Source: Pyrenophora tritici-repentis (Eukaryota; Ascomycota; Dothideomycetes; Pleosporales; Pleosporaceae). From it: a DNA stretch of 64,000 nucleotides. The stretch covers positions 1,054,001 through 1,118,000 of the forward strand of contig NC_089392.1 in assembly GCF_003171515.1 (NCBI RefSeq), written 5' to 3'. The translations under genes and the position numbers were made by a program. This document shows positions 2,841 to 64,000 of the stretch, piece by piece. Numbering within the stretch: position 1 is the first letter of the stretch; every line of letters starts with the position of its first letter. The notes under the pieces are model-generated. The model was not told the DNA's origin and ran no database searches. It worked only from the letters and a program-made list of their open reading frames with translations.

Positions 2841-2886
2841 AACGTTTCATCGAAAGCAACAAGCTGTCAATCCGAGTAGAGGGATC

Positions 2887-3199
2887 TGTGCAGCGACCTA
2901 CGGAGTAGGCACATATGCCTATTTGGAATCCCTCTCATTGTGCCCTTTTTAGAAGACCCGTTTTTCCTTACATCAGTCGTTACAATAAGAAAAGATTGCC
3001 AGTGTCGGCATACACACGGTGTGTCGCCTAATAAGGCCCAATGTACCGCCTCGATCCTACTTCGGCCCAACTCGGACCCAACGCTATGTATACCTTCGTA
3101 GCCCCCACATTCGTAGAATCATCATACACCAGAATACCAATACACAAGATTACCTTAGCTACTGTTATTCACCGTACGATCGTACAAGGCCTTCCAACA
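2887..3199 (+). repeat. copia family A 3' LTR, 313 bp
   Basis: Starts TGTGCAGC directly after a purine-rich tract and ends CCTTCCAACA, so it has the TG...CA ends of an LTR. The same 313-bp sequence, reversed, lies at 62697-63009. The 5' partner is outside the window, so the target duplication cannot be tested. Confidence 0.9.
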
Positions 3200-30225: not shown

Positions 30226-30373
30226 GAATGGATATTTTGCCGCGTCTTAGTGCGTGTACAAGCAAGTTCGAATTAGATAGCTTGAATGGCAATGTATATA
30301 CATGCCTCGACATTAATGTCTAGTGGCACATCAGATGGTATATCAACAATCCATGCAAACATTCATAATACTC

Positions 30374-31238
30374 TTACTGCTTTGTCCCCATGAGTCCCCC
30401 AGGAGGATACTCGGGCTTCCCATCCGGCCCCAAGTTCTCCTCCCCACTCGACCCCGTCCTAGCCGTAGGCTTAGTCCCCGGCCCTCCTCGCTTCTGCCAA
30501 TCAAGCCACGAGCCGCGGTACTCTCCCACATTTACATATCTGTTGAAAAAGGCGTTAGCTGTTGGCCCTCTACACATCCATCTAGCCCTCCATCCCCTTT
30601 CCCAGTAAAAGGACACACATAGAGAGACGGAGACTTACCCAGCCTGTCTAGCAATCCCAGCAGCAGCCCTACTCCTCACCCCCGCCTTACAAAAAAACAC
30701 AACTTCCTTCCCCCTCGGCGGCTTCTCAAACCCAAACTGCTCTCCGAACTCTTCCTCTGGCAGTAGGAGCGCATCCGGGTGCGATGTCACTGGTATATTA
30801 ATCGCCGTCGGGATATTATTTGCGTCGTATTCATGGGGTTCACGGACGTCGATTAGGAGGCGGGAGTCTGAGGGGTGTTCGAGTATGTGGAGCACCTTTT
30901 TTGAGAGGTTAGATGGATAAGTCAGGGGGAGGGGAAGGAGGGGTGTATACATCGTCGAATTCGTAGAGTTTGTTTTCCGTCGAGCTGGGGCTGGAGCGGA
31001 GGGAGCGGGGGGATGGGTGGAAGTGCTGTGTTTGTGTTATTTGTAATGGGTTGGTTATAAGAAACGTGGGTTCTGTATTGCACCACGAATGAATGCTTTT
31101 CTTTTGCGCGAATGGAGGGCCGCCGTGTACTGCTTGTGAGCCGACGATTCTGGATAAGAGGTCTGGTTGACGGCCGATGACGGAGGTTTGCGATCGGGGG
31201 GTGGAGCCCAGGAGTTTGAGAAAGTGTTTCGAGGACAT
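30374..31238 (-). CDS. Mitochondrial rhodanese-domain protein, three exons
   Basis: Exons 31238-30951, 30895-30639 and 30539-30374 join in frame to 236 residues; introns of 55 and 99 nt have GTATAC/AAG and GTAAGT/CAG borders. Residues 1 to about 60 are basic and hydroxylated, with few acidic residues, as in a mitochondrial presequence. The rhodanese domain follows: LLIDVREPHEYDANNIPTA, then FFCKAGVRSRAAA with the active-site Cys in the CxxGxR loop, then GEYRGSWLDW. It would transfer sulfane sulfur, as in the yeast Rdl2/Aim42 type. All family landmarks are intact and the length is normal. The assignment to mitochondria is inferred from the N terminus. Confidence 0.9.
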
Positions 31239-31576
31239 AGTTGCGATTTAGACCGGAAAAGAGTTCGTATGTGGTTCCTCCTTGGAGTTATCGTGGCGGG
31301 ACTTCCGTGGTTAGAAGGTTGGTAGGTTGTAATAGTGTCTATCAGTAGAGATGCCGAGTTGTCGGTAGCAGAAAGTTGAAGCTCGGATGTAGCGAATTAA
31401 CGCCGACGTCACTCTTCGCGAACTCTGCGCGAACGTCGGACGCTAAGCCTTACAACAAGCATGGCATCATTGTGCATGAGTATGCGGCCTACGATTCTGT
31501 AACATTGGTGTTTATATTCATTGAACTTTTATAATTTTACATAAACCTAAAGTGGAGTAGATAATGCCTTCCCAAG
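31239..31576. other. Promoter side of the rhodanese gene
   Basis: No coding or repeat feature seen; presumably the 5' flank of the rhodanese gene. Confidence 0.4.
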
Positions 31577-31980
31577 TAACATGGTTGGCAAGCGAGCGGC
31601 GCACCCAAAAACACACCAAAAAGCGGAGTTTTGGGAACTGAATATCTCAACAACCACCAAATAGATTTTTCTTAAAAGTTTTACTAGAGCTCTAGGATTA
31701 TAATTCTATAAGATCCTATGGTTACAGGGCCCTAGCTACTCTAGATGTAGAGATATAGAGTTTGGGGGCTAAGAAAATGGAAATTTTTCGTTTTTGCTTG
31801 ACAACTCTACGACCAAGTTAGCTATAGTCCTATAACTATACAATCTACATGCTTATGTGTGTGCAGCTTCACGGTAAGATTTTAAGAGAAATCTATTTGG
31901 TGGTTGCTGAGCTGTTCAGTTGCCAAAACTCCGCTTTTTGGTGTGTTTTTGGGTGCGCCGCTCGCTTGCCAACCATGTTA
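31577..31980. mobile_element. MITE, 404 bp, with about 100-bp terminal inverted repeats
   Basis: Left TAACATGGTTGGCAAGCGAG and right CTCGCTTGCCAACCATGTTA are exact inverses, and the match continues with few mismatches for roughly 100 bp at each end. The centre is AT-rich and non-coding. TA at both edges indicates a Tc1/mariner-type target duplication. It lies between the rhodanese and Atos-like genes. Confidence 0.9.
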
Positions 31981-32154
31981 GCCACTTTTGTTTAACAACG
32001 CCCTTGGCCCTTTTCTAATATAGAAGTGACAATGCGTAACGCCATATAAGATGTATGATAAGTATGTGGGGTATCCAGTAAGGAAAGATGGGACGACATG
32101 GGCCAAATAGGAACAAAGAAATATGCATTTGTACATGGGCATTCGGCAGAAGTA

Positions 32155-34642
32155 TCACGTTGACTCTTCTCCATCGCGCTGCACACCCAGCCCCCGCAAT
32201 TTCTGCGACAGTAGACCTGCATTCGGAGGTCCAGTTGGGCTCCCGAGTGGTGAAAAGGCATTCCCACCATACCCAATGTCGCCTTTGCTGAGTTTCTCAA
32301 ACGTGCCGTCGTTGGAGCTATTCGGGCTCACGACAGGCCTCGGTGATGTAACAGGTGTCCTGAAGGGGCTCTTCGGATCAACATCCATGCACTCGCGAGA
32401 AACAGGTTGTGACTGAATCGCAGCTAGTCGACTGAGAGCAAAGGGAATGGGTTGTAAGTCGGCTACATGTGAGCTGAAACTGCTCGACGCAGATGAGTTG
32501 GCATTGTCACCAGTAAACTTCACTGTTGGAGGAGGCAAGGGTGTGTGCTGCCTAATGTTATCAAGCGCATCGTAGGCCTGCTGTGAGTGAGAAAGTGGCC
32601 ATCCAGCGCTGCGACGACGGGAGACTTTGTCTGTAAGCTGAGGCCCGCTAGACTGGGTCTTTTGCGATGCCATAGAGTCTCTTGTCGGTTTGTACGTGCT
32701 GTATCTTGGCTCTGGCTGCTGAATTTCATTTCTCAGCTTCTCCTTACCATCTGGCACTCGATTGGCAAAAACGACGCGTATGCTTTTGTACAGATAATGC
32801 CGACCCTTTGACGGACAGCATATGTGCAAATGAATCAGGTATCGCAGAATAGGTCGGTCGTTGGGATCGTCGGAACTACTGAGAGCAGCTTCTGGGCAGT
32901 CTGTGCCCAAGTTCTTTCGTGAAGAAGAGGGCATATCGATGATAGGCCCCGCAGAATAACTGCGCTGCCTGATGAAGGTCTTCTGCCCTGGCTCCATGTC
33001 GGACAAGTCGTACGGGACGAGGAATAGCTTCACGGCCGTCTTGTTCGGGTTCTTCAGTACTATCTGAAGCTGGCCCTGTGGCGGAATCCGGTAACATCCC
33101 CCGGGAGGCGCTTTCGGTAAAGTCGACCGTCTCTTCTTCTTCTCCTTTCGTCGAAGATTCCCTTTTGTTGTTTGTAGACTTTCTTCATCTCCCAGATGTA
33201 TCCGAAAGTCCAAGTCATCTTGATCGGGGGGAGGTACAGCATGGCGACGCTTATGTTTACCGGATTCTTTGCTTTCATCGGGCGCTGGTAATGAGTTTTC
33301 CAGGTCTATGAGACCGACATATGGACTTGGCTCGTTATCTGAGATCCTACCATTGCCTGTATTGTAGCTGTAGAAGACTGCAGGAAAAGGCACTGTTACA
33401 TGAGGTGGGCACCTGAGACTCGACTTGCAATCTCCACGCCCAAGGACGCCGATTTTGGCGACAAAGTCTAGAGGTCGCGAAGGCGTAGTTGACATACGTC
33501 CTCGCAATATTGACTCCTCGTATGAACCTACCATCGGAGCGTGTTGGAGTGGGGATGCTTCGGATGAGAAAGATGGCCGTCGGGGGCTCAGATAGGGTGT
33601 GTGTGTGAGTGAGAGTAAGGTTCGGATATGTTGTTTGTCATGGATCGCCGAGGTTGATGCGCCTGATACGGTAAGGAGGTGCCATGACGAAGATGGCGAG
33701 CTGCAGGAGTTCCGGTTGCGGATCGCGCCATTTGTATGGACTGGTACGGTTGAAAAGAAGGCGGGGTAAAAGTATGCCTGCGATTATTTCTGTCAGGACT
33801 CGGAGAGGTCTTTCGCGAACTCGGACCAGAGGAGAAGTCTAGACCTGTGTTGTTTGCCTGGTACACAAGGGGGCTTGTGGGTGGCAGAAGTGTGAATTGA
33901 CTGTGTGACGAGTGTGACGTCGCTCGTGCCCGCGCGACAGTACGAGTGTCGTCGTTGCTCGGCTCGGAATATTGGACATGGCTAGTACGGGTCGGATATC
34001 CAGCCGCGGGAAACGAACGGTCCCAAGGAACCACAGGCGAAGTGGCTACAAAACCGGCAGACGAGTGGCCATGGTCGGTTGCGGTAGCCGCTCTCTGCTC
34101 CCGAAAGTCGCCCGAGTGTAATGCCGATCGAGGGCGCTGGATGTCTAGGCCTGCCGCTGCAGCATCTCGGACATGGTCAGGGGTAGAAGTGCGCGAAGCT
34201 TGCAATTCGGTGGAAGGCGTTCGTGGAAGGCTTGGACGGTCTCCAGAAGTCGGACGTGGTGGGATAGGCCCATGATTTGCGATATCGGTCTAGAAATCAA
34301 GTCAGTATTTATTGCATGGATACACAAGCGCTACCGAGTGTATTTTGGCTTTTCTTTACTCACACCCTGCCACTGTAACCATGATGGGCTGTTGGTCTTC
34401 TTTATCCTCTCGATCCACTCATTGCGACCGAACATGGACGGCTTGCGCGTGTGGGTGGAAGACTCGACGTCTACTTCAAGCGACCGTTGGGCAGTCAGGG
34501 CTTCTTCTTGTCGCATGGCGTTGCCCCAATCGTCCTCCGAGTCAAGTCTCGTGGCTCCACCTCTTTCAAGGTTGGTGGGCGAGGTGTGAGCCAAGTATGA
34601 CGGCGCGGGTGGACTATCATTGGGATCATGGAAAATAGGCAT
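32155..34642 (-). CDS. Atos/FAM214-like protein, frameshifted at a CA repeat
   Basis: Exon 1 (34642-34364) ends at GTGAGT; the 74-nt intron ends TTTCTAG; exon 2 runs from 34289. Near the end of a long Ser/Pro/His-rich region the frame shifts at a CA repeat (about 33600). Both Atos domains lie after the shift: MVGSYEESILRGRM with FVAKIGVLGRG and VPFPAVFY, and GQLQIVLKNPNKTAVKLFL with YDLSDM and KTFIRQRSYS. Atos-family proteins are putative transcription regulators; the second domain is also called chromosome-segregation-like. About 800 residues would result if the frame were continuous. The shift may be a real polymorphism, an error, or a hidden short intron. Confidence 0.75.
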
Positions 34643-35322
34643 GACTGAAAGAGAATGTTGTAAGAAACAGCATAGATATGAGTACTAGTATCTCAGTGGA
34701 ATCAGATAATAGTGGTGGGATTATGGAAGTGTGACGACGGCGGAGACAGTGAGGTCAGGATGGAGCGCGTGCTGGCTCGGCGAATGATGTGAGTAAAAGA
34801 AGCAGTTTGGCGCGAATGCGTTGGCTCCAGCGGCCGGCTCACCACACAGTCATACTGGCCAGGAAACAAGGCGAAACACCGTGGAGCGCTCCGGGCTGAG
34901 GTGCGGAGAGGCAGAGGGATGACGGGCTATGCGCTGTGCGCTGTGATGTTTGCAACTACTTGGATGACGGCAAATTTCTAATCGCTGCTGATAAAGGAGC
35001 TCCAGTCGGTCGAACCGGTATTGGCCGAGGTCCTGGCGCAAGAGGTCACACGACGAGAAGAATTAAGTTTTGGCTTTGTGCCTGCACGTGCGCTACCAAG
35101 TGAATAGATGGAACTGTACGTAGGTATGCTCTGCAGAGATACAACGGTGCTCAAAGCTGAGACGGCCTCAGTTGTGCAGTGATGCAGCCATGCAGCCGAT
35201 CCCGCCCCGCTTCTGCCAAGACTGAGTGAGGAAACTACGCGCGCGTGCGCGGTATTGTGCCGTCTTTTGCCTGCTCACTTTTCACTTTTGATCTACCGAC
35301 ATCCACCACCGCTGTCGTCATC
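34643..35322. other. Divergent promoter region of Atos-like and FYV7-like genes
   Basis: No gene or repeat is supported. The last 60 bp are pyrimidine-rich, typical of fungal 5' leaders. Confidence 0.4.
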
Positions 35323-35977
35323 ATGGGAGTAAAACCACGACATGAGAAAGGCGGCGAGTCGTCGGCATGGAAGCAGAAAAAGGGTTTCAAGATTGGCCCT
35401 GCAAATCTGCCCGATGGCACCCATAGACGGAAAAGTACGTATTGGGTCCCATCAAGCGTAGCTCTCCACCATACCTACTAATTTGCGCATAGTCGAAAAG
35501 ATCAAGAAGAGCCTCATCGAGAAAGCCAAGATAAAGAAGCAGTATGCAAAGCTCAAAGCACGTGAAGAAACGGAAGCAACAGCACCGCGCAAATCTGTCT
35601 ATGAACGCGAAGCCGACAACACGACCGACCCTGTACCAGAACCCAGCCTGGAACCCCACCCTGACCGAGTCGCTATGCTGGAAGAGAAGTCACCTGAACC
35701 TCAAGGCACCCGATACATAGAGAGGCAGGAGCGAAGACGGCGTCCACAACCATTCCAGAAAGAGAGCGAGGTGACGCGCAAGAAGAGGGAGGAAGCCGAG
35801 GAGAGGCAAAAAGCGAGGGAAGAGGCAGACAGGGAGCGTCAGAAGAAAATCGCTGAACGGGAGCGCTTTAGAAAAACTATGGCCAAGGCGAGGGGAGGTC
35901 CCAATGGCAAGAGAAAACTCGGTCGCGAAAGCACCATTTTGCTTGCCAAAGCGCAGAGGCTCATGGCCAAAACCTGA
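35323..35977 (+). CDS. FYV7: rRNA-processing protein Fyv7-like
   Basis: Exon 1 is 35323-35434 and exon 2 35493-35977; the 58-nt intron has GTACGT, a TACTAAT branch site and CATAG. The 198-residue product is highly basic. The conserved core is GFKIGPANLPDGTHRRK joined across the intron to IEKIKKSLIEKAKIKKQYAKLKA, the Fyv7/Tap26 signature. A long Lys/Glu/Arg coiled coil follows and ends KRKLGRESTILLAKAQ. In yeast Fyv7 acts in the nucleolus in 18S rRNA maturation with the small-subunit processome. Length and architecture fit the family. Confidence 0.88.
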
Positions 35978-37084
35978 GGAATTCGACCATCTTGTAGAGA
36001 CGCGTGACGTCGACCTCTGGATCCCAGGCAATGAACACGTTCTTGCAAGCCGTCGGGCGACGTTTTCCCGACAAGCTCCGGTTCATGTACAGGTGCTTAA
36101 CACGCCACTGTCTGTCTGAAGCAACATCCTTCAGCTCCACCCGAGAAACGTATCCGGGAGTCACTACACCATACCAGCGTACCCCGAAATGCTACGCTGA
36201 ACGGCCATGTCCGTGTCGTCAGTAGCCTGACTATGCACTGTTTGTCATGCAGATGCTGCTTCTATGCTCAACAAACGTAAGAATATAGAATATCACATAC
36301 GTTCGAGTAACCCGAATAAATTAATGCCTTCTGGAATCAAGTTGTGTAATTCCATTGTCACGTCATTGCTACTGTCGTGTAATCAAAGTCACTTGTACAG
36401 CCTCCGGCTCAGCTCCAAGAGGAGGAGCGGTTGACTTGACAATGCATTCTGTTCGTGCCATTTTGATGCGCAAGATCGGACGCCCATCCCATTGGAGCAA
36501 TCAAGTAAGAGATTATACAAAACCAACTACACTAGCCAGGCCATCGCATGCATGGTCCCACCTTTCTGCGTTCCAACATTCGAATGCATGGAAATACCGA
36601 GGCAGAGGCTGGCGCTTGCCGTATGAGATCTGATCTCCGCACTAGAGACGCCACTCGCTCTTTCCAGCCTCGCTCGCACATCTCGCCATCCCTCTTACAT
36701 CCCACCACCACAGGTCAATGCTGCAGATGCATGCATATGCATTCACCGGGATTCCTCGTGCTACCACAATCCTCTACTATCCACACTCAACCCTATTATG
36801 AGTTGACTAGTAGTTGCCATCGCAGCTTCAAGCTCGCAGATTACACCGGATTTCATATGCTGCCCTCCGTCTTTTGTGAGCATCTGCTATCTTGTACAAG
36901 CAATTTCTATGGTCCGACCTCGAACGCAGCTCAGCCACGCTTGCCTCCGATCGACATTGGTCCGTCACCGGATTTCAATCAGCAGGTGGTTGGCGAGGCC
37001 TGTATTGGGAAAATCATCAACATTAACTGGTCGTATCTTCATTTTCTCGGAGCTTATATCATATTTTTGTATCTTGTGAAACAA
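35978..37084. other. Intergenic, no supported gene
   Basis: Downstream of the Fyv7 gene no coding exon, RNA or repeat could be supported before the LINE tail. Confidence 0.4.
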
Positions 37085-38500
37085 AAGGCCCGTTGCGGGG
37101 GAGCAATGAGCAACGTCAGCCAGACCAACACCGACAGCTACAAGCTATTACTAATTCAATTCCTAAAAACAACAAAAGAGATACAGAACAGACTATCCCA
37201 TACCAGTTTAGACCATGGGATACGCCTAACTACAAAGTAAAAATCTCACAAAAACGCAAGGAAGAGGAAGCAATTGAGCATAAGGCCTACATTAAAACAA
37301 GGCTAGATAACTGCACTACAATCTACTCAGACGCCTCGCAAATAAAAGATGGAAATGGTATAGGTGTTGGCATCGTAGCCTACAACTCAACCCAGCAAGA
37401 GGTCTACTCAGAAAAGACTAATATAGGGGAATACCAGCTAGTTTACAACGGTGAACTAGAAGGTATTACTCTAGCTTTTGAATACGCAGCAAAGACAGCT
37501 ACAAGAGATCAAGAATTTGAGATCTACGCAGACAACCAGGCAGCAATATATAGGCTCAAAAACCTATCAGATAACCCAGGGCAACAGTGGCAACTACGAT
37601 GCCTAAAAGCAGCAAAAACAATCCGACAAAAACAAGCTACTATCCACTTACTGTGGGCACCTGGACACACAGACATAGTAGGGAATGAAAGAGCGGACTA
37701 TCTTGCAAAAGAAGCTGCTAAAGAAGTCCCACAATCATCAACAAAAAGCATTGCCTACCTAGGCACTGTTATCAAAAAGATCGAACAAACCGAACAACGC
37801 CAAGAGTACCAAAAATACAAAACAAGAGCAACTAATCTAAACAAAAAGACCTACTCAGCAAAATTCCCACTCAAAATCCGAAAAACAATCCAAATACCAC
37901 GCAGCACTAATCGAGAAATCTCTAGCGCCTTCTATGCTCTCAAAATAGGACACGGATACTTTGGGTCCTATTTAAAGAGATTCAAGAAAAGAGAATCCGA
38001 CCTCTGCAGTTGCTCGCACACCCAAACACCAGAGCACCTACTTTTACAATGCTCTCTATACAAAACAGAAAGAAAAACTCTTATACAAGCAATTCATCAC
38101 CAACCAGCGACTCTACCACTACTTCTCCATACTAGCGCTGGTATAGAAGCTACTTTAGCTTTTATTACTAGCACTAGAATCGGAACAAGAAAATGGTACC
38201 AAGGACAGCTACCAGACGACACACAGAGAGACACTGTATAAAACTAAAAAACACTGCCTTCCCCTTTGCCATAAGAGCCCGCTGCTACATCTCTTTCTAT
38301 TCACCAAACTGCTCTTTAGCACCAGGCACTAGCTAGACACCGAGTATCTAGCTAGAAGCAAGCCTAAAATGCCATAGCCAAACAAACACCCAAATTGTAC
38401 GATAAACAAAACCAGATAGAACGGCCCTCGGCCCAGTCCTACATAGTCTCTGACTGAAAAAGGACTCAAATGGAATAATAATAATAATAATAATTATTGA
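37085..38500 (+). mobile_element. 5'-truncated LINE tail ending in a TAA repeat
   Basis: Contains the RNase H and 3' part of a LINE ORF2 followed by a short 3' untranslated region and a terminal (TAA)n-like tail (about 38474-38497). The 5' end is cut within ORF2. Base use is A-rich and unlike the LINE at 3-9 kb, so this is a third LINE family. Confidence 0.85.
37093..38241 (+). pseudogene. LINE ORF2 C-terminal fragment with RNase H
   Basis: The open frame encodes an RNase H domain (TIYSDASQIKDGNGIGVGIV, YNGELEGITLAFEYA, IYADNQAAIYRL, LLWAPGHTDIVGNERADYLAK) with Asp, Glu, Asp and Asp in place, then a terminal knuckle CSCSHTQTPEHLLLQC. The RT and endonuclease are missing. The frame has no stop, suggesting fairly recent arrival, but without RT it cannot move alone. 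Codons favour A-ending forms, unlike neighbouring host genes. Confidence 0.85.
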
Positions 38501-38788
38501 GAAGCTGACACTATTAGTAGTAGTATGACTACCTAATAGAGCGCTCTCTAAGGCACAACGGTAGTGGTGGTACAGATTCGTATTGTATTGACTAAGGAGC
38601 TATTCACACGTTCGTAGATCCGTGTTGCGTGCAGCTGCGTCCAAGCTCCCCGCTAGGACCCACCTGCACGTGTCACCAATCATGTGACTACTCCTCCGCT
38701 TGATACCACCAAGTCACTTACGGACTGTATTCTCAACAATAATAATAATACATGTGTCGAAGGTGAAAAGTCGCAGCACCAAACGCCC

Positions 38789-41700
38789 TCAACCATCTAA
38801 TGCTTGAGCTTGACACTGCACAAAGGTTAGCACACATCATCAAACAACAAAAGTTCAGGGCAGGACTTACCATCTGCCAATAAACTCCCCTCTTCCTCAG
38901 TAAACTCTGATGGTCACCCCTCTCCAATACCTTACCACTCCCCATCACAAAGATAACATCCGCCTTTTGAATCGTAGCAAGACGATGCGCAACCGCAATA
39001 ACCGTTTTACTCCCCTCTCCCGCAGCACGCTCAATAGCCTCCTGCACCAACTTCTCCGACTCCGAGTCCAGCGAAGAAGTCGCCTCATCCAGTAACAAGA
39101 GTTTAGGCTTACGAAGCAGTGCACGCGCAAGCGACAACCGTTGTTTTTGACCCCCAGACAACGACAAGCCCTTTGGCCCCAGCCGCTGCTCATACCCATT
39201 CGGAAGCGAGGTGATGAAGTCGTGTATCTGGGCGTCACGACACGCCTTCTCGATATCCTCGTCGCTTGCGGCGTCGACGGATAGCGCGATGTTTTCACGG
39301 ATTGTACCCTCGTAGAGTGTGGGTTCTTGGCTGACGAGGCTGATTTGCTTGCGGTATTCGGATGCGTTGAGCGAGGTGATGTCCTGGCCGTTGAAGAGGA
39401 TACGACCGGATGATGCGTCGTAGAAGCGCTCGAGGAGCGAGATGATCGTTGATTTGCCGCAGCCGGAGGCGCCTACAAGAGCGGCGAATTGGCCTGGGCG
39501 GACGTGTATGTTGAGGTTGGATAGGACGGGTACTTCGCGCGACTTGTATGTGAAATATACGTTCTGGAACTCGATACTTCCGCCTTGGGTAGTTTGTTCC
39601 AACGGCTGGTATTTGGAAGGGCCTGAGGTATTTTGCGGACGCATGCTGATAATGCGGTTCGCGGAAGCCGTCGCCTGGGCCATGTTGGGTGCAAAAGAAA
39701 AAAACATGCCCGCTGCGATGGCGCCTTGTACGATTGCTTGATAGATGACGAAGAAGTCGGCGTTATTGTACTCTCGAGACGCAAGCAAAGTACCACCATA
39801 CCAAAACGTAAGTGCCATAACCCCCAGTTCAACGCTATCACTCGCTGCAAAGACTACAGTGCTATATTTTGCGCTTGAAAAGGCCTTTGTAACATGGCCC
39901 TGTAGTAGTGACTCGTACCGATTCCCGATCATATCCTCCATGATAAGACTGAGTACAGTACGAAAAGCGCCAACAGCTTCAGCAGCAAACTGGCTACTAT
40001 TTTCGAACACTTTGGCGTTTGTCTTTGCAAACTCCATCTCGAGACGCACGCGGAGGTAGCCGGCAGCGAGAATGAGCGGGAGAGCAGCAAAGAGGCCGAC
40101 GAGAGAGAGTTTCCAACCGTAGACGAATGAGATGATGATACATCCCACGAGATTGACAACAGCAATGAGCGCCATGGACATTTCCGTCGCCGTCAGCTGC
40201 TGAATCTGCGTCGTATCTGAACTCAAGCTTGCGGTCAGGGAGCCGGGACTGTGCCCCTGGTCGTCGAAGAATGCGATGCGTTTCCGAATAAGGTTGTCCA
40301 GGTACTCTTGTCTGTACTTGAGCGTGACTGTAATTGCAATGAGTTGGCATGCCGCACCCATGGTGAAGTATGACAAAAAGTTGCTTGCTGCCAGTACACC
40401 GAACATGCCTGCCCAGAAGTTACCTTGGCTGACAAGTTCATTCATTGGCAGTGTAAACACATTGATGACGCTGGCGAAGATCCAAGCTTGAAGGGGGAAG
40501 ACAGCGCCACTTGCCAAGATGCCTGCAATAGCGAGCGCGTATAGGATCCAGTGCTGACGTTGCTCATAGATTAGTCGACCAAAGCTTCTGAGAAGACCCT
40601 GTTGCTTATACTCCGGTTCCGCGGATTCGGAAGTATGACTGCTCACGGTATGCTCCTCGATGACCTCAGATCGAGTAGTTTTGACCTTTTCCAGTACATT
40701 GTCGTCATCAGTATGCTCAGCTTCCATGGCAATCTCTTGTGCGTGAACCAGACCGTAGTAGACACCCGCGTCAATTTTCAGCAGATCTTCATGTGTACCT
40801 TGCTCTACGAGTTTTCCTTGACGCAAGACAACAATCTTATCCGCTCTTCTGATAGTAGAAAGGCGATGGGCAATGACGATGGTGGTTCTGTTCTTGGAGA
40901 CGCGATCCAGTGCTTGCTGAACAATACGCTCAGTCCTAACATCGATGGCGCTTGTTGCTTCGTCCAGAATCAATACAGGTGGTTGTTTGATGATACTCCT
41001 TGCGATTGAGATACGCTGTCGTTGCCCGCCTGACAACTTGATGCCACTTTCTCCCACCATGGTATCGTATCCGTCGGGTAGCTTTGTGATGAATTCTTCG
41101 GCATAGGCTTCCCGGCACGCCTCCTCCACCATTTTCATCTTTTCCTCTTTGGGCAAGCCTTCATAGCTTGTACCACTCAAACCGAACGCGACGTTGTTGT
41201 AGAGGGTGTCGTTGAAGAGGAAGGGTTCTTGTTGGACGAGACCGATTTGAGATCGCCACCACTTGAGATCGACTTGGCTGAGGTCAGTGCTGCCAATCTT
41301 TATATTTCCCGTGCATGTGTTGGGTCCCAATTCAGGCTCTTCTTCCTTGTTCTTGCTTTCTTCGGCCTTCTTCTCCTGAGTCACTTCGGTTGCAGAGGAT
41401 GAGGTGGATATCTGGGTTGCAGGTACGGCTAAAGCTGTCATACAACTGAGATCGTACCATCGCTGTACCAAACCTACAATGGTCGATTTCCCTGGAGAAC
41501 ACGATAGCACGTCAGCAAAGTCCCACAAACTGAGTCATGATGCTTACCACTTCCAGATGGACCAACAATAGCAGTGACTTTGCCAGCTTCGAATGCAAGA
41601 TCAAGGCCCTTGAGAATCTGGACGTCCGGTCGGCTGGGGTAAGAAAAGCACACATTATCGAATGTAATATCAGCATCTGCAGTGATATCCGGCTCTTTCA

Positions 41701-43030
41701 GCCCGGCGGTATTGGGAACCGGTGCATCAATGGTGACGAACAGTACGGTAGCGGCAGTTGCAGCCTTTGTGATAGCAATCATCGGAGAAACGACCCTGTT
41801 GATATTCATCAGCGCCATCATCACCGAAAACAGCACCACTGTTATCATCCCAACGTTCGCCTCTTTGCCTTCGGAGTATCGCTTGATACCAAACCAAAAG
41901 GCAATGGCAAAAGTACCATACTGTCCAACCATCATAGGTGACATCATAAGCCCCATCAGAGGAGCGGCCTTTCTTTCATTCTTCGCAGCCTTGTCCAGCA
42001 TATCTTCATGCTGTCTTGCCAGTTTCGCCTCTGCACCGAACGCAACGATAATGCGAATGGACGAGAACATCTCAAATGCCATGGCAGAAGCATCATCGTG
42101 GTGCTTCTCCGTGATCTTGTGTATTCGCATGAATGGCGGGAACAGCGCACCGTAAACCACCAGGATGAACGGAAGCGAGGCTGAGGCAACCAGCGTGAGC
42201 AACGGACTCTTGATGAACGCTACGACGTAGGCTCCAATGACAAGCGTGAGTGATTGGAACAGCATAGCAAATTCCTGGGAAATGGCGAGCTGGACGGTAT
42301 TGGAAGAGGTTGTGATACGAGTTGACACCTTTCCAGGACTTATAGTATCGATGACGCTGACTGGCTGTGCGAACAAAGCACGCAAGTATGCGAGTCGCAA
42401 TGCAGCAGAGATTCGGAGACCACTGATTCGAATGGTGAGCTTTGCCATTGTTAGTGTGTGGATACAGTAGCGAAGAACTTGTATCTTACCATTGAAATGT
42501 ATGAGAGGAAGAACTTGGCGATGAAAAGACACACCAGATACAGTGTGAGTCTGTTGACCTCTGCTTGAAACTCACGAGATGTCATCGTTGTACCTGGAAT
42601 GAAGTAAGTCGTAAATGAGCCCACTAATTGTCCTGCTCGGTATCAGCAATCGGGTACCTTCCATGATTGAATCGTTGAAGCATACCAAATACGACGTTCA
42701 TCAGCGGGAATGCGATTCCTGAACCTATCGAAGTAATACTGCACAGCGCTATGAGTACAAAGTCGAACGCAGTTCCATACGAAAAGACTCGCTGAGCAGC
42801 TTCTGTTAGTATTACATTGCGTGGTAGCGATAGCAACTTACAAAATAGTTTTTCAAGCCAGCCTGAGGCGACTTCGACTTCGCAGGGCCATCGTCATCGT
42901 GCGCAACTGCTTCAACAACACCATCTTTCTCCTGTTTTGTTTCAAGAACCTGAACTGCAAGTGCAGCGTTCTCCGCCTCAGCATTCGCCGCAGGTCTCGG
43001 TGGCGACCGAGCATCAACAGAAGCGTCCAT
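38789..43030 (-). CDS. ABCB-type multidrug transporter (full transporter), six exons
   Basis: Exons 43030-42842, 42791-42686, 42623-42490, 42439-41548, 41491-38871 and 38815-38789 join in frame to 1322 residues; all introns are short GT-AG. The order is TMD1-NBD1-TMD2-NBD2. NBD1 has Walker A GPSGSGKST (split by intron 4), LSGGQRQR and LILDEATSAID; NBD2 has GASGCGKST, LSGGQKQR and LLLDEATSSLD with the H-loops in VIAHRL and AVAHRL. A charged insertion of about 45 residues lies between Walker A and the Q-loop of NBD1, as in several fungal Mdr/Pmd proteins. It should export hydrophobic drugs at the plasma membrane using ATP. Every catalytic motif is intact. A sense solo LTR lies 30 bp upstream of the ATG. 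Confidence 0.93.
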
Positions 43031-43060
43031 AGTAAAGGGTGCGTAGAAAGAGTGCAAGTG

Positions 43061-43254
43061 TGGTTGTTAGGATGACACCGATCAGATTCGTTCAAGAGTG
43101 GGATCATTGATTGCTCTAAGGATCAGAAAGATCAGACGGCTAGTCCGGTATTTGTACATGATGGACCAGTCCCTTGGCACGGATCCGGAGTCTCAAAGAC
43201 CCGATTCGATCACGTGATCATACGACGTCCAACATCAAGTCCCTTTCCGCGACA
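43061..43254 (-). repeat. Solo LTR, copia family C, 194 bp, upstream of the ABC transporter
   Basis: On the minus strand it reads TGTCGCGGAAAG...AACAACCA, the same 194-bp LTR as the copia 5' LTR at 45380-45573 in opposite orientation. It carries a CACGTG E-box and a TACAAATACC TATA-like stretch. The flanking pentamers (AAGTG and CACCC) do not match. No internal element sequence is attached. Confidence 0.85.
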
Positions 43255-44173
43255 CACCCCCCAGTCCCACGCCGTCTCAAAAAAGTCGGACTGCTCATCG
43301 CATAAGTCGGACTACTCACTGCTGTGCCCCTCTATCTTTTGATCCCCCGTAAGTCCGCCGATAACCGGCGCGCCCCTCTATGGGCATAAAAAGCTGCTCC
43401 TCCGGTCGCTTTTCGACCATCACACCTTGTTCCTTCGAGCCTTTTCAAAAAATAGACCTGCTGCATGATCATGAGCAGTCCTTCCTGTTTTCTCTAAAAA
43501 CCACTTTTGCTCAGAATGGTGTTTGAGCCTGTTCCTCTTTTCTCAGAAAGATTATCTCAGGGAACATAGGGGAACGTTCTCCTCTCTATTCCCATAAAAA
43601 GCTCGAAAGCAAGTGTTCGTAGCCAGTATGTGCGGCTGCTTGGTTCCTTCTGGTAGCTTTGACCAGTCTCTTAAAATTGATCGATCGCCAACTATATGGC
43701 GGTCCAAAAAGTCGTCCCGGACTTTCTGCTCCTGTGTGTAGAAACCTGCTGAAAAATAACATCCGTATTGGCCAACGTCCTGGTCCTGAGTCCTTCGGCG
43801 GTTGAGCGGTTGATCTTGCGGTTTGAAAACTTCGTGAAGTGCGCGGTGATGATCAATAATCCTTACGCTGTGAGTGGTCGGAGAGTGTTTGTTACACTGG
43901 AAACTGGCCGGCGAGCACCAGGCTGGCAACGCTGAGAGCGTTGCCCGGGTGAAAGAGCGTTGCTCCCGCTAGGCTAGCGCTGATCCCTGGTGTTGATGCC
44001 TATGGCTCAGTCCTTTGCTCAGCTACTCCATGTTTTCTACTCCACCATTACAACAATCCTCACCATCACCTTTGCTCCGCACCATCACTCCTTCGCATTC
44101 CCGCACAGCACGCTCTTCACTTTTCTCGCCTTTGTTCTCCTTGCTTTTTCTGCCCGTCGTCGCCGCTCCACTC
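43255..44173. other. Promoter region of the Cys-rich gene
   Basis: The last 160 bp before the ATG at 44174 are a pyrimidine-rich leader. A GGGCATAAAAAGC box near 43382 and a CCCATAAAAAGC repeat near 43591 look like TATA elements. No coding exon is supported here. Confidence 0.45.
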
Positions 44174-45260
44174 ATGGTAATTTTTTGAGCAGCTGCGTAG
44201 CAGTGAGTGAGCAAGATACTAACGAAGTGCAGCCTGGGACTACACGCGGCAAGGCTGCTCAACGATCCAATGCCGAGCATGCTCGCAACTCCAAAATCGC
44301 TGCCTCCGGTGGCTCGCGTTCGGCCGGTGCTCCCCGTTCCGCCGCTGGTGATCGCTCTGAGCCCGAGTTTCGTCGCCGCACCGCCTCTCCGATCAAGGAC
44401 GATGCAAGCCCGTTTACCCGCTCGTCTGTCAAGAAGCAGTTCAACTCTCAAGCCGGCGCTCCGCGCGAGTTCGCCTGCGAGCGATGCGTCAAGCGATGGG
44501 CCGCCAACAATGGTCTTGGCCTTTGCTATGACCAGGCAAACAGCAAGAGCGGTCGCTGCGAGGCTTGCAAGACCCATACGTGCGCGCTCGTGTAAGTTTA
44601 GCATCTGATCTTTGATCTTGATCAAGTTGGCTAATGCTGTTCTTAGCGACAAGTCGATCGCCAGCATTGTCTACCCCGCCATAAAGCAAGGCATTCATGA
44701 GCAGCGGAAGGACGCTCCCTTCGTAAGTAATGCTTCAGTTGATCAATCGCTTGTGCATGGCCAATAGGAACGTCTAGAATATCGTCAAGAAGTATCGCGA
44801 TGTCGTCTTGGAGCAAATCAAGGAGCTTGAGGATAGCCTCAAGTCTGAGCGTCCAACTACCCGTGCTTCGGAGAAGGCTCCCGTGTCCGATGACAACGAT
44901 GACCGATCCATTTCTGAAGAGGAGGATGTTGCTTTCGATCTCGACGCATACTATGCCCGCTCTTCCCAGAAAGAGGAAGACTTTGACGATCTCTCTGGCG
45001 AGGCTGACTACACTACGCCTACTCGTAAGACGAGCATCTATCGCCAGGATGAGTATGATCCTTTCATTGATCATGAGCCTTCGGCTAGACCTTCATCTGC
45101 TCGAAAGTCTTCTGCTGGTCCTTCGTCTGCTCGAAAGCCTAAGCGTCTTGCTGTTCCTGATCGCGCTGCTGTTCGTCGCAAGTCTGTTCAAGACTTTGCT
45201 GATCACATTAGCAAGATGGCCACTGAGTTTGCCGAGAAGCTTGAGCGTGATGAAGCTTAG
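44174..45260 (+). CDS. Cys-rich protein of unknown function, four exons, between inverted LTRs
   Basis: Exon 1 is the ATG alone (44174-44176), followed by a 56-nt intron with ACTAAC and GCAG; exons 44233-44591, 44647-44722 and 44778-45260 follow, with 55-nt introns and GTAAGT donors. The product is 306 residues. After a Ser/Ala/Arg-rich start comes a Cys module: CERCVKRW, GLCYDQ, GRCEACKTHTCALV. This resembles Cys motifs of uncharacterised, repeat-associated proteins of filamentous fungi. A helical segment (IVKKYRDVVLEQIKELED) and acidic then Ser/Arg-rich tail end in a coiled coil. All splice phases fit, so the gene looks intact. No function is known. It sits between two inverted family-C LTRs. 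Confidence 0.72.
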
Positions 45261-45379
45261 GTTCTTTTCTTTTCTGTTGATCTCTTGCTCCTTCTTGGGT
45301 GAGCCTCGCTGATGACGCATTCCAGCTAATTAAGGCCTTTGGCATTAAGCCTTGTATAGTAGTTTCCTTAATTAGACCA

Positions 45380-45573
45380 TGTCGCGGAAATGGACTTGAT
45401 GTTGGACGTCGTATGATCACTTGATCGGATCGGGTCTTTGAGACTCCAGATCCGTGCCAAGGGACTGATCCATCATGTACAAATACCGGACTAGCCGTCT
45501 GATCTTTCTGATCCTTAGAGCAATCAATGATCCCACTCTTGAACGAATCTGATCGGTGTCATCCCAACTATCA
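45380..45573 (+). repeat. 5' LTR of copia family C, 194 bp
   Basis: TGTCGCGGAA...CAACTATCA, TG...CA ends, matching the solo LTR at 43061-43254 reversed. It is followed directly by a primer-binding site and a gag gene, so this is a true 5' LTR. The 3' LTR is not in the window because the element is interrupted at about 46735. Confidence 0.85.
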
Positions 45574-45590
45574 TAGTTATGAGCCCGGCG
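45574..45590 (+). other. Putative primer-binding site matching an initiator tRNA-Met half
   Basis: The sequence TAGTTATGAGCCCGGCG follows the LTR. Its complement contains GGGCTCATAAC, the anticodon-arm sequence of eukaryotic initiator tRNA-Met. Copia of Drosophila is primed from the 5' half of that tRNA, cut at the anticodon loop, and the position fits such priming. Confidence 0.6.
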
Positions 45591-46735: not shown

Positions 46736-47702
46736 GGGCAAAATGGTCGGTTATTCCGGTCGGTTATTCCGGTTAACCAGTTAGTCAGCATTTTCGGCCG
46801 GTCTCAATCAACCGGTTTAATTAATATAATTAAATCGGTTAAACCGGTTAACCAGTTAAATATCTATAAGCTTCTTGTCTTTAATATAATCCTGCAAGCT
46901 TGCTTCTTTCCTCGTTACCATTCTACGTTATGTCACTTCCTGCTAAAACCTCGTCTTCATCTTTACCTGCCAACTTCTACTCCTTTATAGAGATCTCTAA
47001 GGAGCCTCCATCTATAAAAAGGAGTAGTAAGGGCGTTACTATCTACACCTGCAAAGTTTGCGTTCTTCGACCGTTCTCCGGAAATCATCGCATGAATGCG
47101 GTCCGACACGTTCGGAATAATCACCTATTACCGGCTCTTACTCCTCCTCTCGCGTTATCAAGCCCAGCTCCTGAGTCAGTGACTGGAAACTCCCTTACAT
47201 ATAACTCTCGCAAGATTACGTCCTTTTTCTCTACTTCTCCGTCGCCCGATTCTATAAGGAACGTCTTCAGTCTCCCGCGGTATCATGATGCTATCGTAGC
47301 CCTCTTCACACAGCGTCGGCTCCCGTTTTCTGCTATTAAGTAGAAAGAGTTCTAAGAGCTCTCTCTTGCTGCCAATCCGTATATCGAGGACCAACTTCTG
47401 AAAACCCGACGATCGCTCCTACGCATAATCATCACAAATAAAGCCTACTATTAGGAACAGATTAAAGAGAGCCTACAAACCGCTGTGAGCTCTATTTACA
47501 TCTCCTCTAATCTCTAGTCTTCGCCTAACCGCCATTCTCTTCTTGGCATTACTGCACAGTGGGTCGATGTAAACTATAAGCTTCAAACTGGATTACTAGC
47601 TCTCCCGGAATGTCGCTATACCTATAGTGGAGAGCGTTAAGCTGAGTTGCTTCTGCAGGTTATAGAGACCTATAGAATTACGTTAAAGATTGGCTGGCAT
47701 AC
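46736..47702 (+). pseudogene. hAT transposase relic, heavily RIP-mutated
   Basis: Subterminal GGTTAACCGGTT-type repeats (46740-46860) mark the 5' end of a hAT element. From about 46930 a BED-like start (TCKVCVLRPFSGNHRMNAVRHVRNNH) leads to hAT transposase (HDAIVALFTQRRLPFSAI, then in pieces SLAANPYIEDQLL, HSLLGITAQWVD, LLALPECRYTYSGER, IGWHT). At least six stops replace Trp (TAG) or Gln (TAA/TAG), for example at 47341 and 47353; all fit CpA-to-TpA change. The element ends where a Fot1-like insertion begins at 47703. Its 3' half was not found beyond that insertion. Confidence 0.8.
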
Positions 47703-47785
47703 TAACGTCATCGATCATCGAACCGCCCACATCATCGAACCGCCCACTTCTGCCAAGCCCGACCTTCAACCCACCACCACCTACT

Positions 47786-49279
47786 ATGCCTCCACCAATT
47801 GATCTTGAATTTTTCTCTCGTGATGATAGAATCACCCTTGCTATTAAAGCTTTAAAATGCGACGCGTCATTAAGCCAGCGGCACGTTGCTGCACTCTATG
47901 GGGTGCCGCGAAGCACCCTTAAGGATCGCGTCAAAGGAATTGCTTCACGACGCGATATCCAACCCAACCGATCAAACCTGACTAAGGCTGAAGAGGAGGC
48001 CCTTGTCAAGCGTATAAGGGATCTCTCCTCACGTGGATTTGCGCCTACAGTTGAGGAGGTGCGCAATATGGCCAATTCCCTGCTGGCTGCCCGGGGTGAG
48101 GGTCAGGTTGGTGTTTGCTGGGTCTACCGCCTTGTCAAGCGCCAGCCAGACATCAAGACTCAGTTATCACGACCTCGGGACTATAAACGGATCCTGTGCA
48201 GCGATCCAGCTATTATTGAGCCCTGGTTTAGGCTAGTAGCCAACATGAAAGCCAAGTATGGTATCCTAGACGAAGATACCTACAACTTCGACGAGACTGG
48301 CTTCCAGATAAGCCTTGGTGGGTCTGTCAAAGTAGTAACGGCGTCTCAACAACGTCTTAAACCTATCAGCCGGCAGGCTGGTGACAAGGAATGGATAACC
48401 TTAATTGCGGCAATCAACGCCATGGGTTGGCTGATTCCACCGTTCTTCATCTTCAGAGCAAAGAACCACCAACAGGCCTGGTATCATGGCAACCCCAAGG
48501 ACTGGAGGGTAGCTGTTTCAGACAAAGGATGGACCAACAACGAGATTGGAGTAGCCTGGCTAAGGCACTTTATTGACCACACCACCGCGCGTACAGTGGG
48601 CGGGTATCGGCTGCTCATTATTGATGGCCATGAGAGCCACCAATCAGTCCTGTTTCAGGATATCTGCAAGGAGAACAACATCATCACTCTCTGTATGCCA
48701 CCTCATACCTCCCATATCCTTCAGCCGCTTGACGTTGGGTGTTTCGGGCCCTTGAAGCGTGCGTACAAGAAGGAAGTAGGAGCCTTGGCAAACTACGACG
48801 TCAACCATATCGACAAAAAGGCATTCCTAGCAGCCTTTTTAGCAGTATACAAGGGTGTTTTCTCGTCTAATAACATCAGATCTGGATTCCGTGCAACTGG
48901 CTTAGTTCCTATCAACTCAGAGGTGGTGATATCACGACTTGAAATCAAGCCTCGTACGCCATCACCACCCTTACCAACCACCACCTGGCAACCCAGAACA
49001 CCAAGCAACGCCTTTGAGATAGATGCTCACTCAACCCTTATCTCTGATCGGATTAGGCAGCACCATAGCTCATCACCAGCTTCGATTATTGAGATGGTGC
49101 AGCAGTTTAACAAAGGTGCCAAGATGATGGTGCATTCTTACGCTCTTATGGCTGATGAGATGGGTCGACTCCGAGCTGCCAACGCTGCAGCCACAGAACG
49201 AAAACAGCGTATGTCGAGACATGCGCGTACAGCCAGCCCAGCGAGTTTTTCCGGGCCGGAAGCTTGGACCACTAGGTAG
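47786..49279 (+). CDS. Fot1-like DDE transposase
   Basis: The ATG at 47786 starts 497 residues: a psq-type helix-turn-helix (LAIKALKCDASLSQRHVAAL), a Tc5/CENP-B domain (RGFAPTVEEVRNMANSLL) and a DDE superfamily core. The catalytic triad is D169 (NFDETGF), D280 (IIDGHESH) and D316 (LQPLDVGCF), spaced by 35 residues between the last two. These proteins cut and paste the element at TA sites. The core shows no lesion. The frame ends early (AWTTR at 49279); the usual C-terminal zinc knuckle is found out of frame at 49401-49637, so the protein is shortened. An earlier in-frame ATG at 47690 lies outside the element and was not used. Confidence 0.85.
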   Translation: MPPPIDLEFFSRDDRITLAIKALKCDASLSQRHVAALYGVPRSTLKDRVKGIASRRDIQPNRSNLTKAEEEALVKRIRDLSSRGFAPTVEEVRNMANSLLAARGEGQVGVCWVYRLVKRQPDIKTQLSRPRDYKRILCSDPAIIEPWFRLVANMKAKYGILDEDTYNFDETGFQISLGGSVKVVTASQQRLKPISRQAGDKEWITLIAAINAMGWLIPPFFIFRAKNHQQAWYHGNPKDWRVAVSDKGWTNNEIGVAWLRHFIDHTTARTVGGYRLLIIDGHESHQSVLFQDICKENNIITLCMPPHTSHILQPLDVGCFGPLKRAYKKEVGALANYDVNHIDKKAFLAAFLAVYKGVFSSNNIRSGFRATGLVPINSEVVISRLEIKPRTPSPPLPTTTWQPRTPSNAFEIDAHSTLISDRIRQHHSSSPASIIEMVQQFNKGAKMMVHSYALMADEMGRLRAANAAATERKQRMSRHARTASPASFSGPEAWTTR

Positions 49280-49400
49280 ACCAAGCTTCCCGCTCAGCTC
49301 GCACCTGTACATATGGAGATCTCTCCACCCAGCTCTTGCTCACTACTAATCAAATACTATACACTTTGTTCGTTGCAACGACTGCTAGTATTCGACACCT

Positions 49401-49637
49401 TTGCCGTGTCAACAGCGTAAAAAGCGCCGGATTAAGAAAGGTGGGACCCTATCACAGGCAGAGGCAGAGGATTTAATTGCCCAAATAGATGTAGTAGAGG
49501 CGGCAGCACAGGAAACACGTGAGATGAGGCGTGAGGCAGGTGCAACGCAATCGCGGATTTATAGCTGCAAACAGTGTAGACAGCTGGGGCATAATAGGCG
49601 GACCTATAAGAAAGATGCAACTGAATTAGGCGATTAA
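49401..49637 (+). pseudogene. Detached C-terminal zinc-knuckle part of the Fot1-like transposase
   Basis: RKKRRIKKGGTLSQAEAEDLIAQ and ETREMRREAG match the C-terminal tails of Fot1-like transposases, ending in CKQCRQLGHNRRTY. The fourth zinc ligand is Tyr instead of Cys (compare CGRCGETGHNLRTC in the relative at 61 kb). The piece is separated from the main frame by a stop and about 120 bp that look inserted. Confidence 0.7.
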
Positions 49638-49790
49638 TTCTATCTACTTATTACCTGATTTGGATATGTGGTTGTGGAGATATTCTGATTTGAAGGGTGG
49701 GTAGGTGCACAAGGTGGGCGGTTTGATGATGTGGGCGGTTCGATGATCGATGACGTTAACACAGATCAAATCCGAAGTTCGCAATCAAAG

Positions 49791-62696: not shown

Positions 62697-63009
62697 TGTT
62701 GGAAGGCCTTGTACGATCGTACGGTGAATAACAGTAGCTAAGGTAATCTTGTGTATTGGTATTCTGGTGTATGATGATTCTACGAATGTGGGGGCTACGA
62801 AGGTATACATAGCGTTGGGTCCGAGTTGGGCCGAAGTAGGATCGAGGCGGTACATTGGGCCTTATTAGGCGACACACCGTGTGTATGCCGACACTGGCAA
62901 TCTTTTCTTATTGTAACGACTGATGTAAGGAAAAACGGGTCTTCTAAAAAGGGCACAATGAGAGGGATTCCAAATAGGCATATGTGCCTACTCCGTAGGT
63001 CGCTGCACA
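62697..63009 (-). repeat. copia family A 3' LTR, 313 bp, inverted copy
   Basis: Reverse complement of 2887-3199, same length and ends. Attached to copia RNase H on its right, so it is the 3' LTR of a minus-strand element running out of the window. Confidence 0.92.
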
Positions 63010-64000
63010 GATCCCTCTACTCGGATTGACAGCTTGTTGCTTTCGATGAAACGTTCTAACGCGCGATTTGGTGTTGCTTTCGTGAATGCGTCCGCGGGTT
63101 GTCCTCTCCGTTGATCCAGCGGATCTCAGTGATCTCGCGACGCTCGTATGACTGCCGAAGCGCCATGATGTCGATCATCAGTCGCTTCTCAGCAGTTGTT
63201 CCGAGTTTGACGAGGCATTCATACAAGGAGTATGAATCCGTACACACAATAAGTGGGATCGGTGGTAGACCTAGGCGTCCTGTAATTATCTTGAGGGTTG
63301 TTAGGATAGCGATAGCGATGTCGACACCGCTAACCATGCCGTACGTTTCTGAGGCAAGAACGCTCCGGGTAACGCGTTTGCATTTGGTCGAACTCCAATG
63401 GATTACGTTACCACGAATATCAAACGTGCTGTCTTGTCGACTCGACTCATTCGCAAGGATAAGTAGGTACCCTAGCTGTGAGCTAAGGTCTTGGTTGTTC
63501 GCGAAGGATCCGTCTGTGAACACTACCAGCTTTGCTGTAGCGAGGTCGAGAGGACGTATCGCAGGCCTCGTTGTATGCTCTCAGATTGCCACTGCAGCCG
63601 GCGGTTAAGCTTCACGTATTCTGTGTCCTTAGGTTGTTGTATTTGCGCAGCCGCGGAAAGATCGAACGATGCTTCAGGTTGGCATATCGACGCAATGTAC
63701 GCCCACGCGCGCGCTGCTCCATGTACTTCTGTGCTCGGTTTGCTGCCTTCGGATCAATGATTTCGATCTTGGCACCTTGTCCCTTCTGCGTAAGTAGAAT
63801 CGTGTCTCCGCGCAACGTTAGAGTACATCCGTTGAACTCGAGTGATACTTCTTTGGACAGTCTCTCCTTGGGCTTAGCTCGAAAATTGGCTTTCTGGAGC
63901 GCAGCGTCTTCTGCACCAGAGAATGCAGGCGTCCCAATCGCGAGAGTATCGTCTGTCTGCAGGCCCACTATTCCAAACGCTTCCCGTCTCCCGTTCGTGA
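63010..64000 (-). pseudogene. copia family A RT and RNase H, second copy, broken
   Basis: The minus strand repeats the RT end and RNase H of the element at 1-3199 almost base for base. It shares the one-base loss before the conserved ending (GEDNPRTHSRK). It has two further one-base losses of its own: near 63555 (CGTCCTCTCG against CGTCCCTCTCG at about 2340) and near 63705 (GTGGGCG against GTGGCGCG at about 2190). The pieces are 63523-63056 (TDGSFANN to the end) and 63968-63612 (QTDDTL onwards). The upstream part is beyond the window. Confidence 0.9.

What the first reader, a model, noticed from the sequence alone, without database searches (positions are those of the whole stretch)
43030..43254. 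Sense-oriented solo LTR 30 bp upstream of an intact ABCB multidrug transporter
A 194-bp LTR occupies the minus strand directly upstream of the transporter ATG (43030), reading in the same direction and leaving 30 bp. It contains a CACGTG box that the related LTR at 45380 lacks (CACTTG there) and a TATA-like stretch. The core promoter and leader would therefore be element-derived. LTR insertions upstream of efflux genes are known to raise fungicide tolerance in other fungi (for example MFS1 in Zymoseptoria tritici), so altered expression of this pump is plausible.
Basis: partly seen in the sequence, partly recalled or inferred. Interest (0 to 1): 0.85.

Follow-up and report, generated by a model that had tools for sequence, protein, structure and literature searches.

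The report
Retroelement LTR in place of promoter
In a wheat-pathogen fungus, one of two near-identical copies of a membrane pump gene lacks its own upstream DNA and starts 28 bases after a retroelement end, so any transcript probably begins in the mobile element; whether it is transcribed at all is untested.

Summary
The LTR is real but not solo. It is 196 bp (43059-43254, minus), one of at least 40 copies. It is the 3' LTR of a Copia-like element whose polypurine tract and 2.1 kb of internal DNA (43255-45379) are still attached; a second, opposite element abuts at 45380. The gap to the transporter ATG is 28 bp. CACGTG is the family norm (33 of 42 LTRs), not a special feature of this copy. The ABCB-type gene is intact (6 exons, 1325 aa) by sequence. 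The genome matches Pyrenophora tritici-repentis, probably isolate M4. A 98% identical paralogue on C6 has no LTR, and its homology to this copy stops exactly at the LTR end. No second copy of 1036 bp of the paralogue's upstream DNA was found in the genome, so only 28 bp of native leader are seen here. Transcription, if any, must start in element DNA or in those 28 bp. Raised expression or fungicide tolerance is not shown. The LTR leader carries upstream ATGs, one opening a frame that overlaps the pump's start, and the surroundings are transposon-rich, so silencing is a serious rival. Kind: known (TE-supplied promoter at a transporter); the paralogue pair is a natural promoter-replacement comparison.

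The parts
38789..43030 (-). ABCB-type full transporter gene, exons 43030-42842, 42791-42686, 42632-42490, 42439-41548, 41491-38871, 38815-38789; 1325 aa
   Evidence: Spliced model open throughout; 100% to P0001; ABC_membrane and ABC_tran domains with two and three stretches; two Walker A, signature and Walker B motifs
43031..43058 (-). All that is seen of the native 5' leader: 28 bp shared with the C6 paralogue
   Evidence: No difference in 29 aligned leader columns, counting 43059; alignment stops at 43059
43059..43254 (-). 3' LTR of a Copia-like element, 196 bp, TGTCGCGG..AACAACCACA
   Evidence: 40 places scored; ends set by relatives with exact 5-bp duplications
43211..43216 (-). CACGTG box, LTR positions 39-44; family norm
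   Evidence: 33 of 42 copies
43105..43107 (-). Upstream ATG (LTR position 148), 77 nt before the transporter ATG, opening an 84-codon out-of-frame uORF that overlaps the start
   Evidence: ATG kept in 34 of 42 LTR copies
43255..45379 (-). Internal 3' part of the same element, polypurine tract next to the LTR
   Evidence: Repeated elsewhere next to the same LTR; PPT flank in 9 further listed copies
44174..45260 (+). Antisense accessory gene inside the element: ATG 44174, introns 44177-44232, 44592-44646, 44723-44777 (inferred); 306 aa
45380..46728 (+). 5' LTR (45380-45575) and gag part of a second, oppositely oriented element that looks inserted in the first; upstream flank GACCA
   Evidence: Full-length relative L016 continues past the matching point; 97% to L012, L016 and L017 as far as 46728
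37027..38750 (+). Repeat with a LINE-like RNase H frame bounding the 3' end of the duplicated transporter block
   Evidence: RNase_H domain; repeats; C6 homology ends at 38749
30226..43059 (.). Segmental duplication shared with C6:2372443-2390364, interrupted by repeats

Best explanation
The window transporter is one copy of a C3/C6 segmental duplication. A Copia-like element sits in sense orientation with its 3' LTR end 28 bp before the ATG, and no native DNA upstream of that point is found at this copy (shown, within the limits of the search). The 5' side of that element was cut off by a second, opposite insertion and further loss or rearrangement (inferred). The 3' LTR, perhaps with the promoter region of the adjoining antisense gene, is the only promoter-sized DNA next to the gene, so the transporter, when transcribed, uses an element-derived start, most likely in the last third of the LTR (inferred), giving a leader with an overlapping upstream ORF. 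The expected result is regulation unlike that of the C6 paralogue; the direction of change is open.
For: LTR identity and copy number; internal DNA and polypurine tract attached; C6 paralogue without an LTR, homology stopping at 43059, the LTR's last base; no second copy of 1036 bp of C6 upstream DNA found; reading frame intact and under constraint, dN/dS 0.27 over 640 codons against C6; a TATA-like TACAAATACC kept in 35 of 42 LTRs.
Against: No transcript data. Four upstream ATGs in the LTR, one overlapping the start. No canonical TATA box. Dense transposon surroundings. Protein changes lean to this copy, 19 against 8 with 5 undecided, p 0.052, and CpG losses lean to it, 11 against 2 (post hoc); both fit a weakly used or silenced copy. 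CpA changes lean the other way, 2 against 8, p 0.11.
Confidence: 0.58

Rival explanations
1. The C3 copy is silent or nearly so: without its promoter and in a transposon-rich stretch, it is a slowly decaying duplicate and the C6 copy does the work.
For: Native upstream DNA not found; overlapping upstream ORF; excess of changes on this copy; repeats on both sides.
Against: All 1325 codons and 5 introns intact; dN/dS 0.27, although part of that may be shared history; the same protein is named in a published annotation.
Confidence: 0.3
2. The transporter is driven by a bidirectional promoter that belongs to the element's antisense gene rather than by the LTR; the LTR is only leader.
For: A CATAAAA or TATAAAA motif at the place of window 43385 (+) is kept in 9 of the 11 places listed; the antisense gene lies divergent from the transporter, whose ATG is about 355 bp from that motif.
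Against: No transcription data in either direction; the sense LTR is closer and is by nature a promoter (general knowledge of LTR elements).
Confidence: 0.12
3. The LTR raises expression of the pump and so fungicide tolerance, as in Zymoseptoria tritici MFS1.
For: Similar geometry, a Copia LTR upstream of a transporter gene; precedent proven by gene replacement (PMC5656749, passages).
Against: No expression or sensitivity data; upstream ORFs in the leader; substrates of this transporter unknown.
Confidence: 0.12
4. The LTR-gene junction is an ectopic recombination joint between LTRs, or the edge of the duplicated segment, not an insertion followed by loss of flanking DNA.
For: Native upstream DNA is found nowhere else; the 1.8 kb nearest the LTR differs from C6 by 55 substitutions, the next ~360 bp by 1 (post hoc split).
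Against: The joint falls exactly on an LTR terminus, as integration gives. A single polypurine-tract copy among 7 LTRs with this end type is not unusual (Fisher p 0.66).
Confidence: 0.35

Closest known systems
Zymoseptoria tritici MFS1 type I promoter allele (PMC5656749; passages seen)
   Same: Ty1/Copia LTR upstream of a drug transporter gene
   Different: There a 519-bp LTR insert lies 200-500 bp upstream and overexpression is proven. Here it is a 3' LTR with 2.1 kb of its element, 28 bp from the ATG, the native promoter is not found, an LTR-free paralogue exists, the pump is ABCB rather than MFS, and no expression data exist.
Botrytis cinerea mfsM2 promoter rearrangement of MDR2 strains (PMC2785876; passages seen)
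   Same: Retroelement-derived insertion combined with loss of native promoter DNA upstream of a transporter
   Different: There a 1326-bp RT/RNase H fragment without LTRs, with reporter proof. Here an exact LTR terminus joins the gene.
Antisense additional ORFs between pol and 3' LTR: plant Grande, RIRE2, Retand; fungal Boty brtn (PMC7264820 and PMC8365987, passages; the brtn paper itself seen only as a reference title)
   Same: Antisense gene in the same place within an LTR element
   Different: Copia-like host element and three inferred introns; no relative outside P. tritici-repentis in the one protein search made
Transduplication in P. tritici-repentis (PMC3538342; passages seen)
   Same: Transposons tied to gene copies in the same species
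   Different: There a DNA transposon carries the gene between its own ends; here the gene is part of a multi-kb segmental duplication bounded by repeats

Membership tests
Solo LTR | Single LTR flanked on both sides by the same short target duplication | tested here: not met
   Flanks GGGTG and CTTGC
Solo LTR | No internal element sequence attached | tested here: not met
   Polypurine tract and 2.1 kb of internal DNA attached
Ty1/copia LTR retrotransposon | Direct LTRs, 5-bp target duplication, PBS and PPT | tested here: met
   Full-length relatives on C7 (flanks TAAAG/TAAAG) and C10 (ACTAC/ACTAC), PBS-like stretch after the 5' LTR; the PBS reading is from memory of tRNA-Met primers; the window copy itself is truncated
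Ty1/copia LTR retrotransposon | Integrase-side domains before an RVT_2 reverse transcriptase | tested here: met
   In relative L016: gag_pre-integrs (below its cut-off) and SH3_retrovirus upstream, RVT_2 downstream; no integrase core domain was reported; no pol is seen in the window copy
ABCB full transporter | Two membrane and two ATPase domains with Walker A/B and signature motifs | tested here: met
Multidrug efflux pump | Exports several unrelated drugs | not testable with these tools
   Only homology to P-glycoproteins and to proteins named pmd1 or tr06
TE-activated efflux allele (MFS1 or mfsM2 type) | TE sequence directly upstream of a transporter gene | tested here: met
   28 bp from the ATG
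TE-activated efflux allele (MFS1 or mfsM2 type) | Expression raised against an insert-free allele | not testable with these tools
   No RNA data held

The most novel reading that the evidence does not exclude
A duplicated transporter whose native promoter has been wholly replaced by a retroelement end, so that two near-identical pump copies in one genome form a natural promoter-replacement pair, with the pump and the element's own antisense gene facing away from a shared ~1.1 kb element-derived control region that regulates both.
Probability: 0.25. Interest if true: 0.6.

Novelty: new member of a known kind. Interest (0 to 1): 0.4.

Why it matters
If the copy is expressed, one genome holds a native-promoter and an element-promoter version of nearly the same transporter, which helps to separate the effect of the promoter from that of the protein without strain differences. 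It would add an ABC transporter to the proven MFS cases of element-driven pump genes. If silent, it is a clean example of a duplicate left without a promoter beside a transposon.

Tried and rejected
Solo LTR: rejected. CACGTG as a gained box: rejected. Frame broken in the C6 copy: the tool counted one TAG in the C6 match. The C6 exons I could read (642 codons) hold no stop and equal P0002, so the TAG lies either in the intron stretch at the start of that match or in the part of C6 not read; I take the first as likelier but did not prove it. LTR type swap by recombination: one polypurine-tract copy among 7 LTRs with this end type, against 9 of 34 listed others, is not unusual (Fisher p 0.66; one search had been entered as 10 of 34, p 0.65). 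First intron 1 acceptor chosen wrongly, corrected. Bacterial promoter scan, Rfam, tRNA and NCBIfam (bacterial and archaeal models) added nothing. Papers: no paper of the library holds A1F94 with Pyrenophora; searches for the transporter in this species (10 of 10 listed, 12 of 27 listed) and for an antisense gene in Pyrenophora retroelements (2 of 2 listed) showed nothing on this locus in titles or abstract starts; of the papers opened only passages were seen. Not examined: 6.9 kb of C6 between 2379152 and 2386051, the rest of the C6 gene's DNA, DNA beyond the window on C3, any other isolate's DNA.

Rows dropped: 3 of 45 LTR rows were dropped as identical (two are the same place seen in overlapping loci, one is a second place with identical sequence in L037), 4 of 45 (the same three and one more place, on C10, identical in sequence to the C7 copy). 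One search scored 40 of 52 candidates, so copy counts are lower bounds. One search scored the 7990 candidates sharing most words and listed 120 of 2401 hits.

Full report
Where it is. The window is C3:1054001-1118000 of a 40,899,269-base genome in 41 contigs. The transporter protein is 100% identical to a Pyrenophora tritici-repentis protein (P0001, named A1F94_013780 by its source). Size and contig number fit isolate M4 (41 scaffolds, 40.92 Mb, N50 3.65 Mb in PMC7507622, passages); the isolate is inferred.

The LTR. The repeat on the minus strand upstream of the transporter occurs in at least 40 places. In the loci fetched, 45 LTR matches were found, 42 of them distinct. Thirteen of 41 listed copies have exact 5-bp duplications on both sides when the LTR is taken as 196 bp. 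Most copies end ..AACTATCATA or nearly so; six, the window copy among them, end ..AACAACCACA and one ..AACCACCACA. The window copy so spans 43059-43254, leaving 28 bp (43031-43058) to the ATG.

It is not solo. Directly 5' of the LTR (towards higher coordinates) is a purine-rich flank that also precedes nine other listed LTRs, and parts or all of the 2125 bp between the two window LTRs recur elsewhere beside the same LTR. Full-length relatives exist: on C7 (about 7.9 kb, flanks TAAAG on both sides) and on C10 (ACTAC on both sides). In the C7 copy, gag_pre-integrs and SH3_retrovirus come before RVT_2 (gag_pre-integrs is below its curated cut-off), the Copia order. So 43059-45379 is the 3' part of a Copia-like element in minus orientation. 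At 45380 a second element begins in plus orientation; in L016 the matching stretch continues instead, so the second looks inserted into the first. Its match to relatives stops at 46728.

The CACGTG box. It is the family norm: 33 of 42 distinct copies have it; 3 have CACATG, 3 CATGTG, and the 45380 copy alone has CACTTG. It is therefore no special gain of this LTR.

The transporter. A six-exon model, 43030 to 38789, is open for 1325 codons and carries membrane and ATPase domains in both halves with both sets of ATPase motifs. The best solved relatives are ABCB1-type translocases. 'Multidrug' rests on homology.

The paralogue and the missing promoter. A 98% copy lies at C6:2386051-2390364. Its upstream DNA (L041) has no LTR; the alignment to the window stops at 43059, the last LTR base, which matches by one letter. 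A search of the whole genome with the 1201-bp C6 stretch found only itself and the 165 bp shared with the window; that search skips simple repeats and very common words, so a decayed copy could be missed, but a direct comparison with the 64-kb window also found nothing more. So 1036 bp of native upstream DNA have no counterpart found on C3. Window 30226-37117 is also about 99% identical to C6:2372443-2379152 in pieces, so the transporter was copied as part of a multi-kb segmental duplication that ends at a repeat near 30226 on the left and at the LTR on the right. PMC5913888 (passages) reports 255 regions of segmental duplication in M4; whether this one is among them I could not see.

How the two copies differ. 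Over 2165 aligned columns there are 56 substitutions and one 3-bp gap. For 640 codons dS is 0.062, dN 0.017, ratio 0.27. The C6 exons read so far (642 codons) have no stop and equal P0002. With three outside proteins as guide, 19 protein differences fall on the C3 copy, 8 on C6, 5 undecided, p 0.052 (P0002 stands in for C6, and one of the 19 is a one-residue deletion). CpG-type losses fall 11 on C3 and 2 on C6 (p 0.022), while CpA-type fall 2 and 8 the other way (p 0.11); four contexts were looked at. Fifty-five substitutions lie in the 1.8 kb next to the LTR and one in the next ~360 bp (the split was chosen after seeing the data). These patterns fit a weakly used copy or a mosaic origin of the 5' part; they do not show either.

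How it likely works. With no native upstream DNA in sight, transcription must start in element DNA or in the 28 bp. The LTR has no TATAWA motif; TACAAATACC at LTR position 99 (35 of 42 copies; 3 have TATAAATACC) is the nearest. A start some 30 bases further on, as is usual for such boxes (general knowledge), would leave the ATG at LTR position 148 in the leader. That ATG opens an 84-codon frame running 178 nt past the start of the transporter ATG; its context is weak (T at -3) and the transporter's is good (A at -3, G at +4; read). In the C6 copy the nearest upstream ATG is 159 bp away. So output could be higher, lower or nil. The element's antisense gene, with a CATAAAA motif at 43385 that is kept as CATAAAA or TATAAAA in 9 of 11 places listed, faces the other way and may share the control region.

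Comparison. The nearest precedents are the LTR in the MFS1 promoter of Zymoseptoria tritici, proven by gene replacement (PMC5656749, passages), and the mfsM2 rearrangement of Botrytis cinerea, in which a retroelement fragment came with loss of promoter DNA (PMC2785876, passages). The present case resembles the geometry of the first and the promoter loss of the second, but no effect is shown.

The arrangement is probably not an assembly error: the antisense gene's protein and the transporter carry consecutive source names in a published annotation (A1F94_013779 and A1F94_013780), both clusters listing a longest contig of 3,659,090 bases, against 3,658,030 for C3 here. Whether that is another isolate or another version of the same one I could not tell.

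Verdict. Structure firmly established and corrected; promoter replacement well supported; regulatory effect open.

Noticed in passing
44174-45260 (+): Intron-bearing (inferred) antisense gene, 306 aa with CxxC pairs and no Pfam match, inside a Copia-like element between pol and 3' LTR; dN/dS about 0.28 against the C7 and C10 copies, which have no in-register stops, while six other copies have 6-12; only two protein clusters found, both P. tritici-repentis. Antisense placement would let introns survive an RNA stage.
   Followed up: partly
41260-43059: The 1.8 kb of the transporter next to the LTR is more diverged from the C6 copy (55 substitutions) than the following ~360 bp (1) and than the duplicated flank at about 99% identity; mosaic origin or relaxed constraint.
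   Followed up: partly
30226-43059: Segmental duplication with C6:2372443-2390364; a ~400-bp repeat at about 31577-31980 is present here and absent from the matching place on C6, with at least ten further copies elsewhere.
   Followed up: partly
LTR position 33 in 43059-43254 and 45380-45575: The two window LTRs share a T found in no other of the 42 distinct copies, perhaps conversion between neighbours.
   Followed up: no
47690-49758: A frame that resembles a DDE transposase (recalled, no domain search made), with 45-bp inverted repeats at 47703-47747 and 49714-49758.
   Followed up: no
62697-64000 and about 1894-3199: A ~1.3 kb stretch present in at least 30 copies at 99-100% identity across the genome, so recently active.
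   Followed up: no
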